Assembly (NCBI GenBank): GCA_945278685.1
Contig: CALYPW010000004.1
Location: 1 to 32,624 of the forward strand
DNA length: 32,624 bases
Origin: an uncultured Dolosicoccus sp.
GTDB taxonomy: Bacteria > Bacillota > Bacilli > Lactobacillales > Aerococcaceae
Reading direction: 5' to 3'
This document shows, one piece after another, positions 1-6,771 of the stretch. The notes beneath the pieces are model-generated. The model saw only the letters and a program-made list of their open reading frames with translations. It made no database searches and was not told the DNA's origin. The number at the start of each line of letters is the position of its first letter. Position 1 is the first letter of the stretch. The position numbers and the translations under genes are program-made.

Positions 1-946
1 TGTATAATAATTGTGTGTCGTATTCATTTCTATTTATTGCCTGATATTCTTTTGACATAAGCTTGCCAATAAATTTATCTTCTAATTTATCCCAATTCTC
101 AAGTACAAACTCCCACATAAGTTCATTCATGCTATCTAAATCATCACTATTCATCATATTCTTGATTGCTACGAACTCTTTTGGTATTGAGTTGTGATGA
201 GTACCTCCTCGCAGCTGTGCACTCATCTGTTCATTCCACGCTTTCAACGTTCTTTCTGCAATGGCGTTTAATCTAGCGTTCATATTATTCATTTTAGTAC
301 CTGTAATTCGTTCTATTTCAGCATTGCCAACTTCATACACATTAATGCTATTCAAATCATCAACAAGCTTCACTTGTGACTTTGTTAAAGTTTCATGTTT
401 ATTCCCCTCAAACCATTTGCTAAATTTAGACTTGTGCCATTTTAACTTTTGACTGTTATTGAATACATTCGACTCTTCTGACAATAAATCCATTATACTA
501 ATCTCTTCATTATCATTTGACAAATAATCAAGTGAATACGTATTCAATACTATTTTTGCTCTGTCCTCACCCTTACCAACTCTAACACGAACAACATCCG
601 TCTTTTCTTTTCGCTCACCCTTGATTGCTTTGAAAACGTATTTTGACAATACATTCATTTCTCTATTTGCATCATAATCTATTTCTTCATCACATTGCTC
701 AAGAATAGCTCTCTCAAACGCTACATCCGCTCCGCTGTACGCCATTAGCGCTTCAAACACACTATTCATGTAATCGACTTTAAACTGCTTAAAAGAGTGC
801 CTCTGCCCCATTCTAGAGTACTGACTAGAGCATTGACTTCGCAAAACATCATGTTTAATAACAACGTTTAGATCTAAATCTTTGTTCCTAATTACTCCTA
901 CTTCAAACCAAGTTTCTAGCACCTTTTCAATTGTTTCATTTTTCAC
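1..946 (-). CDS. Hypothetical element protein, partial (runs off left edge); not in the supplied ORF track
   Basis: Own translation of the minus strand from GTG at 946: VKNETIEKVLETWFEVGVIRNKDLDLNVVIKHDVLRSQCSSQYSRMGQRHSFKQFKVDYMNSVFEALMAYSGADVAFERAILEQCDEEID... open to base 1 (about 315 codons). Preceded by GGAGAGGATGATAA (good Shine-Dalgarno). Confidence 0.75.
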   Translation of the reverse strand, partial: MKNETIEKVLETWFEVGVIRNKDLDLNVVIKHDVLRSQCSSQYSRMGQRHSFKQFKVDYMNSVFEALMAYSGADVAFERAILEQCDEEIDYDANREMNVLSKYVFKAIKGERKEKTDVVRVRVGKGEDRAKIVLNTYSLDYLSNDNEEISIMDLLSEESNVFNNSQKLKWHKSKFSKWFEGNKHETLTKSQVKLVDDLNSINVYEVGNAEIERITGTKMNNMNARLNAIAERTLKAWNEQMSAQLRGGTHHNSIPKEFVAIKNMMNSDDLDSMNELMWEFVLENWDKLEDKFIGKLMSKEYQAINRNEYDTQLLY

Positions 947-995
947 TTATCATCCTCTCCATAGTTTATTTGTTTTAATTAGATACTTCTGTTTC

Positions 996-2228
996 TTAGA
1001 CTATTTTTAACCATGGGTTTTCATTTTCATAAGAGTGGTCATCAACATCTTCTTCATCTCTAGTCTCAAATAGGTTACTTATGCAATTGCCAGAACGTTC
1101 TGTACTTGACTCTTGCTGGTCATCATAACTGTCATAGGCTGAATCATCAGTGGCAGTCTCAAGGTCTTTTAGCTCTTCCCTGATTGTCTTTGGGTTATAC
1201 TCATCATTATAATGCTCTAATTCTGCACCATATTCCTCATTTATCTCATCTTTTAAGCTATTAGGAGCATACCCACCAGATAAAGCATCTTGAGCAAACT
1301 CTTCTTTAGCAACCTCTAACATCTGTTGGTTAACCTCTTTAGTCTTGTTCGTTGGGCTATATTCAAACACATCCTCTAGAACCTCTAAAGTTTTCTGTGT
1401 GCTGTTGAGGTTCATCCAATGTAACATTTGGTGAAGTATCTCTCTGTCTTCAAACTTTGTATAGTAATTAAATACTCGTTTATACTCTGCATCAGAGTTG
1501 TATTCTTCATGTGGGTGCTGAACTTGCATTATAAAGATTAGTTGTAATTCAAATAGTGTATCCATATACTTTTTATAAGTTTTCTCAGTTTTAACTCCAA
1601 TTGACTTCATAAGAGTTGATTGAGCTTTATAACAAATACCATCTCTTAAAGTGTTCATTCTAGTATAGGCATCTTGTGGTGAGGTGTTTTCAATTGCTTT
1701 ATCCCATCTTGCTCTAGTTATTCTGTTTGTTGATGTAGCAACTGATGCATAAGTGGCAATCAAGTGGATTTTCTCGCTATCTGAAACTTCATGGCTTACA
1801 AGAGACTTATATGCACTGTATGGGAAGCTGTACCATTCCTTTTTACCATCAACTAGAGCCTGTTTGATATAGTAAGCATTTCCATTTTCTTGTACCTTTT
1901 CGATAACACCTTTGTTAATCAAACCGTTCATTGCCTCTACTATATTGTCCTTTACCCTTCCTCTTCTACCTTTTAACTGTAAAGCATCGACTAAGAAGTC
2001 ATCTGTTATGGTTAATGTTGTTAATTGCTCATCACCTAACCAAGCTGTGTAAGATGAGATTGCCACATGTACCGCAACCTCCCAAACACTTTCATAGAGT
2101 CCATTTTTAAAGCCAAACTGTGATACAGGTATTCTATGTTGATTTGACTCTAGTGTTTTATAAAAGTCAGGTGCTCCTTCAAAAATATATTCTAGTCTTT
2201 CATCTATCCTTTCTTGTTTTTTTATCAT
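996..2228 (-). CDS. Putative replication initiator / replication-module protein (winged-helix-like), 410 aa
   Basis: Long ORF with acidic low-complexity C-terminus; its 5' end faces a repeat-rich iteron-like region (2298..2500). Family assignment is by context and general appearance only. Confidence 0.5.
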   Translation of the reverse strand: MIKKQERIDERLEYIFEGAPDFYKTLESNQHRIPVSQFGFKNGLYESVWEVAVHVAISSYTAWLGDEQLTTLTITDDFLVDALQLKGRRGRVKDNIVEAMNGLINKGVIEKVQENGNAYYIKQALVDGKKEWYSFPYSAYKSLVSHEVSDSEKIHLIATYASVATSTNRITRARWDKAIENTSPQDAYTRMNTLRDGICYKAQSTLMKSIGVKTEKTYKKYMDTLFELQLIFIMQVQHPHEEYNSDAEYKRVFNYYTKFEDREILHQMLHWMNLNSTQKTLEVLEDVFEYSPTNKTKEVNQQMLEVAKEEFAQDALSGGYAPNSLKDEINEEYGAELEHYNDEYNPKTIREELKDLETATDDSAYDSYDDQQESSTERSGNCISNLFETRDEEDVDDHSYENENPWLKIV

Positions 2229-2297
2229 AATTTTTCTAACTCCTTTTTCCTATGTCGTATTTCTAATTCCTCTTTTCTATTTTTAAGGACTATAATC

Positions 2298-2317
2298 AAT
2301 TCGCTTTTTAGCGAATT
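2298..2317. repeat. Perfect inverted repeat AATTCGCT-TTTT-AGCGAATT upstream of the putative rep gene
   Basis: 8-bp arms, 4-nt loop, read directly. Confidence 0.85.
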
Positions 2318-2325
2318 AAATGTAT

Positions 2326-2376
2326 TTACTTTACTACTGTTCGGGTTACTTTACTCCTATAATGGGTTACTTTACT
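2326..2376. repeat. Iteron-like direct repeats TTACTTTACT x3 (2326, 2346, 2367); the last two extend to GGGTTACTTTACT
   Basis: Spacing 20 and 21 bp, about two helical turns. Confidence 0.8.
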
Positions 2377-2389
2377 AGATAGTAAAATC

Positions 2390-2499
2390 TGGTCGATTTT
2401 GACCACATTTTTTTCAAATCTTAAAAATAATGTGGCAGAATTTACCACTTTATTTTAAGGTATAGGAATAATGTGGCAGAATTTACCACATTTTTTTCA
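2390..2499. repeat. Three ~41-bp-spaced palindromic repeats (TGTGGcagAATTtaCCACA type)
   Basis: AATAATGTGGCAGAATTTACCAC exact at 2426..2448 and 2467..2489; diverged copy TGGTCGATTTTGACCACA at 2390..2407; ACCACATTTTTTTCA exact at 2402..2416 and 2485..2499. Confidence 0.85.
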
Positions 2500-2503
2500 C
2501 CCC

Positions 2504-2707
2504 TTATATTGCTACCTTTTCCATCTTTTTTTCATCAAGGTACTCATCAGCAATACTTGCTACATTTTCGCTCTTATAAAACAACCAGAATCTCTTCAAT
2601 GAGCTAACTGCATGGGCTGTAGTTATGTATTTTTCCCCACTGTCAATGATTCTATTTCTTAACTCTTTATCATAAACGAATAAAAAATCTTGCTTATCCA
2701 TTATCAT
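2504..2707 (-). CDS. Small hypothetical protein, 67 aa (phage/plasmid-type accessory ORF)
   Basis: ORF in the same orientation as its neighbours; pattern YITTAHAVSSLKRFWLFYKSENVASIADEYL; possibly DUF5659-like by memory, not verified. Confidence 0.5.
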   Translation of the reverse strand: MIMDKQDFLFVYDKELRNRIIDSGEKYITTAHAVSSLKRFWLFYKSENVASIADEYLDEKKMEKVAI

Positions 2708-2739
2708 TCCTCTCCTTGCTATATGTCTGTTTTGATTTC

Positions 2740-3015
2740 TTACTCTGTCATCTCTAACATTGCATCAAATATTTTCTTGTTTTTATTAGCCTTCTTCATT
2801 ATTTGCTGGGATAAACTATCTGCTGCTTGCCTTGTAATCCCTAACTCTCTAGCAATCTCAGCATTGTACATTCCCTTTAATCTCATGTCGTAGTATTCCT
2901 TCTGCTTCTCTGTTAGTTGTTCTAGGATGACATGTTTGTATAACTCTTTGGCTTGTCTGATGTTTTTCTCAATTCTTTTTCTCTTGTTTAATTCTTTTCT
3001 GCTTAGTTCTTTCAT
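2740..3015 (-). CDS. Small HTH protein, sigma-70 region 4-like
   Basis: LTEKQKEYYDMRLKGMYNAEIARELGITRQAADSLSQQIMKKANK matches a sigma-r4-type helix-turn-helix pattern. Confidence 0.6.
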   Translation of the reverse strand: MKELSRKELNKRKRIEKNIRQAKELYKHVILEQLTEKQKEYYDMRLKGMYNAEIARELGITRQAADSLSQQIMKKANKNKKIFDAMLEMTE

Positions 3016-3138
3016 TTCTTAGCACTCCTTTTTTATATATCTCCCTCACTTCTGTAACTACAGTATACCACACTGGCAATCAAATGTCAAGACCTTTTTG
3101 TATGACAATCCAATTGTATCAACGTTTCTCACCTAGTA

Positions 3139-3225
3139 TTCTATATAAATAGAATTGTTACATTTGTGTTACAAATTAAAGTAACATTCTTTCTTTAACT
3201 ATTACTCACAATTATTTCACAATTA
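3139..3225. promoter_or_regulatory. Operator-like repeats in the long leader upstream of the HTH ORF
   Basis: TTCTAT-ATAA-ATAGAA (3139..3154); TGTTAC at 3156..3161 and 3167..3172 with inverted GTAACA at 3181..3186; TCACAATTA at 3206..3214 and 3217..3225. Confidence 0.45.
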
Positions 3226-3230
3226 GGCAT

Positions 3231-3256
3231 AAAAAAAAGAGGGCTTATAGCCCCCT
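3231..3256 (-). terminator. Rho-independent terminator after the secreted-protein fragment
   Basis: Minus strand reads GGGGGCTATAAGCCCTC then TTTTTTTT. Confidence 0.8.
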
Positions 3257-3275
3257 AGTGAATAAGTGTATATTT

Positions 3276-3848
3276 TTAGTAATCACTACCTTTGATAAGT
3301 ATCTCATGAATAAAAATAAGTGGTGTTGTGTTTTCGCTACCTAATACTGTCTCATACCCCTTTAACCCAGCCAATAGTCCATAAACATCTACTTCATCGC
3401 CTTCTACTAGTCTATTCTCAGGTAGTGAAGAAAAGTACGCTTGATATATCATATCAGAATTGGCATCTCTCATTAGCATAGCCATGGCATTATCCCCATC
3501 TTCATAGTACTGAAGGACTTCAGCATAGAATGTGTGTTTAGTTCCAAGTTTACCACTTCGGTCTCGCATAATATCTTCATACGCGATGATTTCATATGAA
3601 TCTGGATTAAATGCTTCTTCTTCAGGTTCATATGATTTTTCAGTCTGAGATGATTCTTCAGTCTGAGATGACTCTTCTGTCTGAGATGATTCTACAGAGT
3701 CTCTTAATCTATTTAATTCACTACTGTCAATTGGTAAGTATTTCCTAATCATAAGTTTATTTTTTCCTTCATTATCGGTCTTATAACTTATAATATAGAT
3801 AATATCATCAGAGTAATACAAGACAACTCTACTTGTTAAGCCATCTTA
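3276..3848 (-). pseudogene. C-terminal part of a secreted element protein (OB-fold-like end, 3x ESSQTE repeats), in frame with the upstream ORF beyond TAA TAA
   Basis: Same frame as 3849..4325; continuous sense sequence DGLTSRVVLYYSDDIIYIISYKT... directly follows the two stops; no convincing Shine-Dalgarno/ATG of its own. Confidence 0.55.
3640..3693. repeat. 18-bp tandem repeat x3 encoding ESSQTE
   Basis: TCAGTCTGAGATGATTCT / TCAGTCTGAGATGACTCT / TCTGTCTGAGATGATTCT. Confidence 0.9.
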
Positions 3849-4325
3849 TTAAACAGAATTAGCATCTACAAGATTCAAATCAGGATAAAACTCATTTACT
3901 TCATAAATTACAGAATCATTGGCTGATACTTCTGAGTCAAATGAATCTACTTTATCATTTTGAAGAAACTCATTTTCACTATCAGGATTTTCTTTTAACA
4001 TAGCTACTCTTTTTTTAGAGATATGACTGTCAGCACTGTTATTGAAACTTTCATAACCCACTTTAATTATGTCCTCAATCTGAGTTTTAAAGCTACTATC
4101 AAGAGTTATATCTTTAAAATTTTTAATATACATTTTATGGGTATCATACAAACCTATCTCACCATAAGAAACCCATGTTTCCCCTTTAAACACATCATTT
4201 AATGATAAAGTCTCAGTGTCTTCAGCATAAACGTTTTTAATATCAAAATCATTTGCGATAGGTAGTGTCCCAACAACAGTCAATAAACATGAAGAAGTAA
4301 GCAACATTTTAGCTATTTTATTCAT
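3849..4325 (-). CDS. Secreted protein, N-terminal part (signal peptide MNKIAKMLLTSSCLLTVVGTLPIANDF...AYA-like)
   Basis: Internal ATG at 4325 with upstream GAGG, then K-rich and hydrophobic signal sequence; ends in TAATAA. Confidence 0.65.
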   Translation of the reverse strand: MNKIAKMLLTSSCLLTVVGTLPIANDFDIKNVYAEDTETLSLNDVFKGETWVSYGEIGLYDTHKMYIKNFKDITLDSSFKTQIEDIIKVGYESFNNSADSHISKKRVAMLKENPDSENEFLQNDKVDSFDSEVSANDSVIYEVNEFYPDLNLVDANSV

Positions 4326-4400
4326 TGTACACCTCATCAATATTTTATATATAAATATTATCAAATATAATCATCTTATTCTAGTACTATTTTGATATAT

Positions 4401-4432: not shown

Positions 4433-5374
4433 TTATAGTTTTCTATCCTTTATTAGCATCATCAGGGGAGTGGTGTCACTCTGCCCCTCCATCAACTCAA
4501 CATCAGTAATACTGTTTAGATATATTTGTGTCGTCTTAACACTAGAATGTCCTAACAATCTACTGATTGTAAAGAGGTTCACATTTGCTCTTAACAGGCT
4601 CTGAGCATAGTAGTGCCTGAATGAGTGACAGCTCTTCCTCTGCACATCATCTCTCACCCCTACAGCCTCACGTGCCTCTTTAACAAGTATCTCAATCATG
4701 GCATTGCTTTTCATTTCATTACCTGATTTAGTGAGTAATAGGCAATCTTCCAACTCTCTTTTCACCCTTAGATTATTGAAGTAGTCATATCTCGTTCTTC
4801 TATATTTTGCTATGGATTTTTGAATATAAGGTGAGAGTGGTACTATTCGCTCTTTGTCTCCTTTACCAGTGAACTGTAAGTATTCTCCTCTGATAGAGTC
4901 ATCCTTCAAACCCCTTACCTCAGACACTCTCAAGCCACAGTCAGCCATCAATTCTATGATGAGTTTATTTCTTCTGTTTAAGAATCCTTGTCCTGAAAAG
5001 TACTCGATTACTTTAGCTACTTCTTCATCTGTAAAAGTGTTCATCAATTTTCTTTCTGTCCTGAGAGGTTTTATCTGTCTCGCAAAATTATCTTCAATTA
5101 TCTTTTCATCTACTAAAAAGTCGAAGAATACCTTCACAATTTTAAGTATTTGATTAATATACGAGGCACTATAAGCAGAATCCTGCATACCAACAATAAA
5201 TCGTTTGATGTCTGTTCTGCTAATATCTTGAACATTTACACGCTCATCCTCACTAATTCTGCCAAAGAACACGTTCAGCTGAAACCCATATGTCTCAATC
5301 GTTCGTTTACTTAGATTTCTTATCCGACAATCTAATTGAAACTCATCCACCAATTCTTTATACAAAAAAACCAC
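4433..5374 (-). CDS. Tyrosine recombinase / phage-type integrase (likely GTG start)
   Basis: N-terminal core-binding pattern (LVDEFQLDCRIRNLSKRTIETYGFQL), catalytic GLRVSEVRGL, SCHSFRHYYAQSLL, LLGHSSVKTTQIYL. Confidence 0.95.
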   Translation of the reverse strand: MVFLYKELVDEFQLDCRIRNLSKRTIETYGFQLNVFFGRISEDERVNVQDISRTDIKRFIVGMQDSAYSASYINQILKIVKVFFDFLVDEKIIEDNFARQIKPLRTERKLMNTFTDEEVAKVIEYFSGQGFLNRRNKLIIELMADCGLRVSEVRGLKDDSIRGEYLQFTGKGDKERIVPLSPYIQKSIAKYRRTRYDYFNNLRVKRELEDCLLLTKSGNEMKSNAMIEILVKEAREAVGVRDDVQRKSCHSFRHYYAQSLLRANVNLFTISRLLGHSSVKTTQIYLNSITDVELMEGQSDTTPLMMLIKDRKL

Positions 5375-5409
5375 AACCTTCCTGTACTTTTACTCAGAAA
5401 GATTGTGGT
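5364..5409 (-). terminator. Rho-independent terminator of the eno (glycolytic) operon, overlapping the integrase start
   Basis: Minus strand ACCACAATCTT (5409..5399), 18-nt loop, AAGGTTGTGGT (5380..5370), T-run to 5364; 11-bp stem with one G-U pair. Confidence 0.8.
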
Positions 5410-5469
5410 GGTGTACTGTCAAATAGAAGCTTTTTAAGTTTAGCAATACTGTATTCAGTGCTAAAACGC

Positions 5470-6771
<1,302 letters not shown>

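What the first reader, a model, noticed from the sequence alone, without database searches (positions are those of the whole stretch)
5364..5409. Integrase start codon and Shine-Dalgarno nested in the eno operon terminator
On the minus strand ACCACAATCTT-(18 nt containing AGG)-AAGGTTGTGGT-TTTTTT forms an 11-bp terminator hairpin 60 bp after the eno stop. The integrase reading frame starts at GTG 5374 inside the 3' arm, its AGGAAGG Shine-Dalgarno spans the loop/3' arm, and the U-tract encodes Val-Phe-Leu. Integrase expression in the integrated state would therefore need terminator readthrough or melting, linking excision to glycolytic operon transcription. It also suggests the terminator's 3' half is the attachment site, so the int 5' end would be rebuilt at each integration. 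The hairpin and frame are seen directly; the regulatory and att roles are inference.
Basis: partly seen in the sequence, partly recalled or inferred. Interest (0 to 1): 0.72.

Follow-up and report, generated by a model that had tools for sequence, protein, structure and literature searches.

The report
Integrase start site inside a terminator
A mobile element sits at the end of the enolase gene and ends that gene's message with an RNA hairpin that also hides the ribosome-binding site of its own integrase; the same design recurs in a whole clade of Firmicutes integrases that target the ends of at least six different genes.

Summary
The hairpin is real and unlikely by chance (-22.5 kcal/mol, z = -3.95; 15 pairs rather than 11). 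The AGGAAGG Shine-Dalgarno lies in its 3' arm and a U-tract follows. The start codon, however, is more likely TTG 5365-5363, directly after the U-tract, than GTG 5374, only 2 nt from the Shine-Dalgarno. The attachment-site idea is wrong in location: relatives carry a second copy of the eno 3' end 7-18 kb downstream, which puts the crossover inside the eno coding sequence, about 100 nt before the stop. The element thus brings a new eno 3' end, the leader and the hairpin. The main result goes beyond the finding. In one clade of 51 tyrosine integrases (the window's family, Enterococcus, Vagococcus, Bacillus, other Bacilli, Clostridia), 46 have a terminator-like hairpin whose 3' arm holds the Shine-Dalgarno and whose U-tract abuts the start codon; outside the clade, 1 of 81. 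Hairpin sequences differ and covary. Wherever the upstream gene was identified, int lies just downstream of it on the same strand (eno, guaA, yebC, a DUF59-like gene, gapA, UPF0154). Best reading: one hairpin replaces the host terminator and insulates integrase translation from read-through. Regulation was not tested.

The parts
5470..6768 (-). eno (enolase), host gene; by homology its last ~100 nt are element-borne
   Evidence: TIGR01060 E 3e-209; the att core of relatives lies in this gene
5552..5576 (-). Inferred attachment core in the eno coding sequence (CAGACCGTACCGCGAAGTACAACCA, encoding DRTAKYNQ)
   Evidence: Position homologous to the left edge of the duplicated segment in L072, L074, L081, L086; coordinates. 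By homology only
5440..5449 (-). GTATTGCTAA in the leader, like the core of relatives; possible integrase-binding arm site
   Evidence: Sequence match; similar copies in relatives' leaders and far ends. Role inferred
5370..5409 (-). Terminator hairpin, 15 pairs, 10-nt loop, 3' arm holding the Shine-Dalgarno
   Evidence: Fold -22.5 kcal/mol, z -3.95; arms defined
5377..5383 (-). AGGAAGG Shine-Dalgarno inside the 3' arm
   Evidence: Sequence; anti-SD duplex -6.9 kcal/mol, all 8 nt of the scored site in the stem
5364..5370 (-). U-tract (7 T), spacer between SD and start
   Evidence: Sequence
5363..5365 (-). Likely integrase start codon TTG
   Evidence: Alignment of homologue N-termini; homologues start right after the U-tract
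4433..5365 (-). Tyrosine recombinase (integrase), same strand as eno
   Evidence: PF00589 E 1.6e-23, PF13495; phrog_1 integrase
1..4364 (-). Rest of the element within the contig: unknown 315-aa and 410-aa proteins, a sigma-region-4-like protein (2740-3015), 181-aa and 171-aa proteins of unknown role; the far end is off the contig
   Evidence: the window is the start of, and fills, contig G000:C4 as numbered

Best explanation
An integrative element of unknown type has integrated inside the 3' end of eno by tyrosine recombination. It supplies a replacement eno C-terminus, a short leader and one dual-use hairpin. SHOWN: in relatives, the eno 3' end is duplicated kilobases away with the core inside the gene; the hairpin, with the SD in its 3' arm, the U-tract and the start codon directly after, is a clade-wide feature kept despite sequence change and changes of target gene. 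INFERRED: the hairpin acts as the intrinsic terminator of the host transcript, replacing the displaced native one. In any transcript that reads through, it closes over the Shine-Dalgarno, so the strong host promoter upstream drives little integrase. Integrase then comes from rare read-through, hairpin breathing, or an unidentified signal. The hairpin is on the element side of the core, so it stays upstream of int in both the integrated and the circular form.
For: Hairpin real. All 15 homologues of at least 37% identity in 398 genomes sit directly downstream of eno on the same strand. A second eno 3' end lies 7-18 kb away in 8 integrase-bearing loci, and 11 of 14 non-eno relatives have a second copy of their target gene's 3' end. 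Nested hairpin in 42 of 50 distinct members at score >=24 and in 9 of 9 members found afterwards, against 9 of 648 other ORFs in the same loci and 1 of 82 more distant recombinases. On a tree, 46 of 51 in one supported clade against 1 of 81 outside. In six guaA-subclade hairpins 99% of pair cells are kept, with both-sided changes at 4 pairs; slid registers give 55-63%. Empty sites have unrelated ordinary terminators. Four of the five exceptions (L103-L105, L126) carry a separate terminator between eno and int, and their predicted folds still pair the SD.
Against: No RNA or protein data. The window's own far end is missing, so its att site rests on homology. The members are related, so the counts are not independent. 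A purine-rich 3' arm plus a U-tract is naturally a fair ribosome-binding site, so sequestration could be a by-product of compaction. L143 lacks the hairpin without any obvious replacement terminator. L106 has both a separate terminator and the nested one.
Confidence: 0.72

Rival explanations
1. Regulated switch: host-gene transcription, or a signal that melts or bypasses the hairpin, sets integrase levels, so excision reports on the target gene's activity.
For: int lies directly downstream of, and on the same strand as, housekeeping genes throughout the clade. A different eno-3'-end prophage, phage 20617 of S. thermophilus, alters eno transcription, and lysis of its host tracks energy status (PMC6237837).
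Against: Targets include non-glycolytic genes such as guaA and yebC. No anti-terminator structure was shown. Phage 20617 int is convergent with eno, so it is not the same design.
Confidence: 0.13
2. Internal promoter: int is normally transcribed from a start inside the loop or 3' arm, so the messenger lacks the 5' arm and the SD is free; only outside transcripts are closed.
For: This would let the element express int while insulated, in the manner of insertion sequences (established knowledge, not tested here).
Against: Sigma-70-like sites placed to start inside the hairpin are no better than in shuffled sequence: 1 of 39 at p<=0.1, median p 0.72. The window scan found none on the minus strand there. 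Other promoter types were not tested.
Confidence: 0.1
3. Compaction only: the element keeps a terminator for the host gene and the nearest usable ribosome-binding site happens to be the terminator's 3' arm; hiding the SD has no selected role.
For: Purine-rich 3' arm, U-tract and start codon make a natural initiation region; the leaders are short.
Against: Members that have a separate terminator and have lost the U-tract still fold the SD into a hairpin (L103-L105, L126-L127), which suggests separate selection on sequestration. These are few lineages.
Confidence: 0.2
4. The terminator's 3' half is the attachment site and int's 5' end is rebuilt at each integration.
For: The hairpin is close to the host-element boundary.
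Against: The duplicated core is inside the coding sequence in eno and in other targets. No exact second copy of the 3' arm is in the own genome, though that genome is incomplete.
Confidence: 0.03

Closest known systems
IS200 and Tn10/IS10 5' insulation (terminator and/or RNA structure upstream of transposase; discussed as 'mobile attenuators' in PMC2965389, which cites Davis 1985 and Beuzon 1999)
   Same: A recombinase gene is protected from outside transcription by a terminator and/or an RNA structure at its start
   Different: Here a site-specific tyrosine integrase; terminator and SD sequestration are one hairpin with the start codon abutting the U-tract; the hairpin also replaces a host gene's terminator. 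The word integrase does not occur in PMC2965389
Streptococcus thermophilus prophage 20617, integrated at the 3' end of eno (PMC6237837; NC_023503)
   Same: Target is the 3' end of eno, with a 43-bp duplicated site at that end
   Different: int is on the opposite strand to eno, so no nested arrangement
Streptococcal ICEs and IMEs inserted at the 3' ends of guaA, rplL, rpsI, rpmG, lysS (PMC4701971, PMC5357655)
   Same: Tyrosine integrases that use the 3' ends of conserved housekeeping genes with restoring direct repeats
   Different: Neither paper mentions enolase or a terminator in its main text; whether their guaA integrases belong to this clade was not tested

Membership tests
Tyrosine recombinase / phage-type integrase | Phage_integrase catalytic domain with R..H-x-x-R..H..Y | tested here: met
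   PF00589 E 1.6e-23; invariant R146, H247, R250, H273, Y282 in A1
Gene-3'-end integrating element | Host gene 3' end duplicated at the far end of the element | tested here: inconclusive
   Met in relatives; the window's own far end lies off the contig and was not found in the genome
Intrinsic terminator | Stable stem-loop followed by a U-tract | tested here: met
   Fold and 7-T run; the simple terminator scan, limited to loops of 3-8, did not list it; termination itself not testable here
IS200-type recombinase insulation | Terminator and SD-sequestering structure at the 5' end of the recombinase messenger | tested here: met
   SD within the 3' arm in the window and in 42 members; functional repression not tested
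IS200-type recombinase insulation | Belongs to an insertion sequence (IS) family | tested here: not met
   Tyrosine integrase with a site-specific target; works like it, is not a member
ICE / IME | Conjugation or mobilization genes (relaxase, coupling protein) | tested here: inconclusive
   None recognised in the 4.3 kb of element on this contig; the rest is missing
Prophage | Structural or packaging genes | tested here: inconclusive
   No structural or packaging family in the part seen; the rest is missing

The most novel reading that the evidence does not exclude
The hairpin is a regulated switch: integrase is made only when host-gene transcripts read through and the stem is opened by a specific factor or by ribosome/polymerase dynamics, so that this clade of elements uses its target gene's transcription to time excision.
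Probability: 0.13. Interest if true: 0.85.

Novelty: new variant of a known kind. Interest (0 to 1): 0.62.

Why it matters
Elements that land at the 3' ends of strongly expressed genes must give the host a working terminator and must avoid being driven by the host promoter. This clade appears to solve both with one hairpin that also contains the integrase's ribosome-binding site, and to keep it while switching between at least six target genes. It gives a simple, testable rule for finding integrase starts and element boundaries, and makes the control of integrase expression in these elements directly testable with small reporters.

Tried and rejected
Terminator as att site: rejected. Own-genome search for the hairpin arm, the eno end and the core: no informative second copy; the contig starts at base 1. 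Internal sigma-70-like promoter in the hairpin: no enrichment. GTG 5374 as start: disfavoured by spacing and homology. Plasmid search with the 410-aa protein: no match. Nearest phage integrases only about 34% identical. Single-sequence scan of named genomes: nothing. Literature searches for the nested design in integrases found none in the open-access library, which is not proof of absence. A three-sequence alignment of the DUF59-subclade hairpins was too uniform to be informative.

Full report
OBSERVATION. The minus strand carries ACCACAATCTTTCTG-AGTAAAAGTA-CAGGAAGGTTGTGGT-TTTT-TTG, 60 nt after the eno stop. The fold is -22.5 kcal/mol, z -3.95, with one of 200 shuffles as good. The stem is 15 pairs, longer than the 11 reported. 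AGGAAGG lies fully in the 3' arm. The GTG at 5374 is only 2 nt after it. TTG 5365-5363 is in frame, 11 nt after it, and directly follows the U-tract. The homologue alignment begins at that point, and homologues start right after their own U-tracts. I therefore take TTG as the start; this is inference from homology and spacing.

SETTING. The window is contig G000:C4 from its base 1, in a 1.26-Mb, 123-contig assembly. The integrase is a tyrosine recombinase. The 4.3 kb of element on the contig holds a sigma-region-4-like protein and otherwise proteins of unknown role. The element type is undetermined.

TARGET. In 398 genomes of the order, all 15 homologues with at least 37% identity sit directly downstream of eno on the same strand. 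Eight of these loci have a second eno 3' end 7-18 kb downstream. The left edge of the shared segment in several is TGACCGTATTGCTAAATACAACCAATTA, which encodes DRIAKYNQ inside the gene. Upstream of it the second copy is unrelated element DNA. So the element exchanges the last part of eno, and everything between the new eno stop and int, including the hairpin, is element DNA. The corresponding place in the window is 5552-5576. No second copy is found in the own assembly, which is incomplete. The same-genus genome G001 has no int there and an ordinary, unrelated terminator.

CLADE-WIDE DESIGN. I scanned for a stem followed by a T-run within 14 nt of an in-frame start. Of 50 distinct family members with upstream sequence, 42 score at least 24. 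In the first set the rates at that score were 33 of 41 family members, 1 of 82 more distant recombinases and 9 of 648 other ORFs of the same loci. Later searches covering 799 genomes gave nine new members; all nine have the hairpin and all lie behind eno, guaA or yebC. On a tree of 132 integrases, 46 of 51 rows of one supported clade (SH-aLRT 98) have it, against 1 of 81 outside (threshold 21). Hairpin sequences are unrelated between subclades. Within the guaA subclade, 99% of cells stay paired, with both-sided changes at 4 of 17 pairs; slid registers pair 55-63%. These counts are not phylogenetically independent, but the trait survives changes of target: eno, guaA (GMP_synt_C), a DUF59/MIP18-like gene (FeS_assembly_P), yebC, gapA and UPF0154. 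Eleven of 14 non-eno loci again show a second copy of the target's 3' end.

EXCEPTIONS. L103-L105 and L126 lack the U-tract version, and these have a separate conventional terminator between eno and int. Their predicted folds still pair the SD. This suggests two separable functions, termination and SD hiding. L143 is an unexplained exception, and L106 has both.

MECHANISM. Most likely the hairpin ends the host transcript and, in read-through RNA, closes the integrase ribosome-binding site. The position of the core implies that the hairpin stays upstream of int in both the integrated and the circular form. How int is turned on is unknown. A sigma-70-like promoter inside the hairpin is not supported. 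Coupling to host-gene transcription is possible, but no evidence here shows it, and targets outside glycolysis argue against a glycolysis-specific sensor.

KNOWN SYSTEMS. 5' terminators and RNA structures that protect transposases are known ('mobile attenuators', PMC2965389). Integration at eno's 3' end is known from S. thermophilus phage 20617 (PMC6237837), where int is convergent. Integration at guaA and similar genes is known in streptococcal ICEs and IMEs. I found no description of an integrase ribosome-binding site nested in the replacement terminator; the library is open-access only.

VERDICT. The design is a new variant of recombinase insulation, conserved across one integrase clade.

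Noticed in passing
window 2395-2500: Repeated GTGGCAGAATTTACCAC-like motifs upstream of the 410-aa protein (996-2228), reminiscent of replication iterons; the protein has no family match.
   Followed up: partly
L086 (G057) and L087 (G050), 3-4 kb after eno: Second eno 3' ends without any clade integrase between: apparent relics of eno elements in Vagococcus-family genomes.
   Followed up: partly
L083/L084 (G046) and L081 (G101): G046 has three eno 3' ends in a row and L081's second copy is followed by the same leader as the first, suggesting tandem or stacked elements at one site.
   Followed up: no
L044/L106 (G145) against L046/L047 (G135, G142): An element in an Enterococcus genome carries an eno 3' UTR and terminator like those of Vagococcus-family genomes, suggesting element transfer with captured host 3' UTR.
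   Followed up: no
L230 at about 187 +: A non-integrase ORF of Enterococcus innesii also has a strong hairpin with GGAGG in the 3' arm and GTG right after the U-tract; found as a control hit.
   Followed up: no
L143 (IMGVR_UViG_651324052_000001): Clade integrase behind yebC that lacks the hairpin, with an ordinary AAGGAG ribosome-binding site.
   Followed up: no
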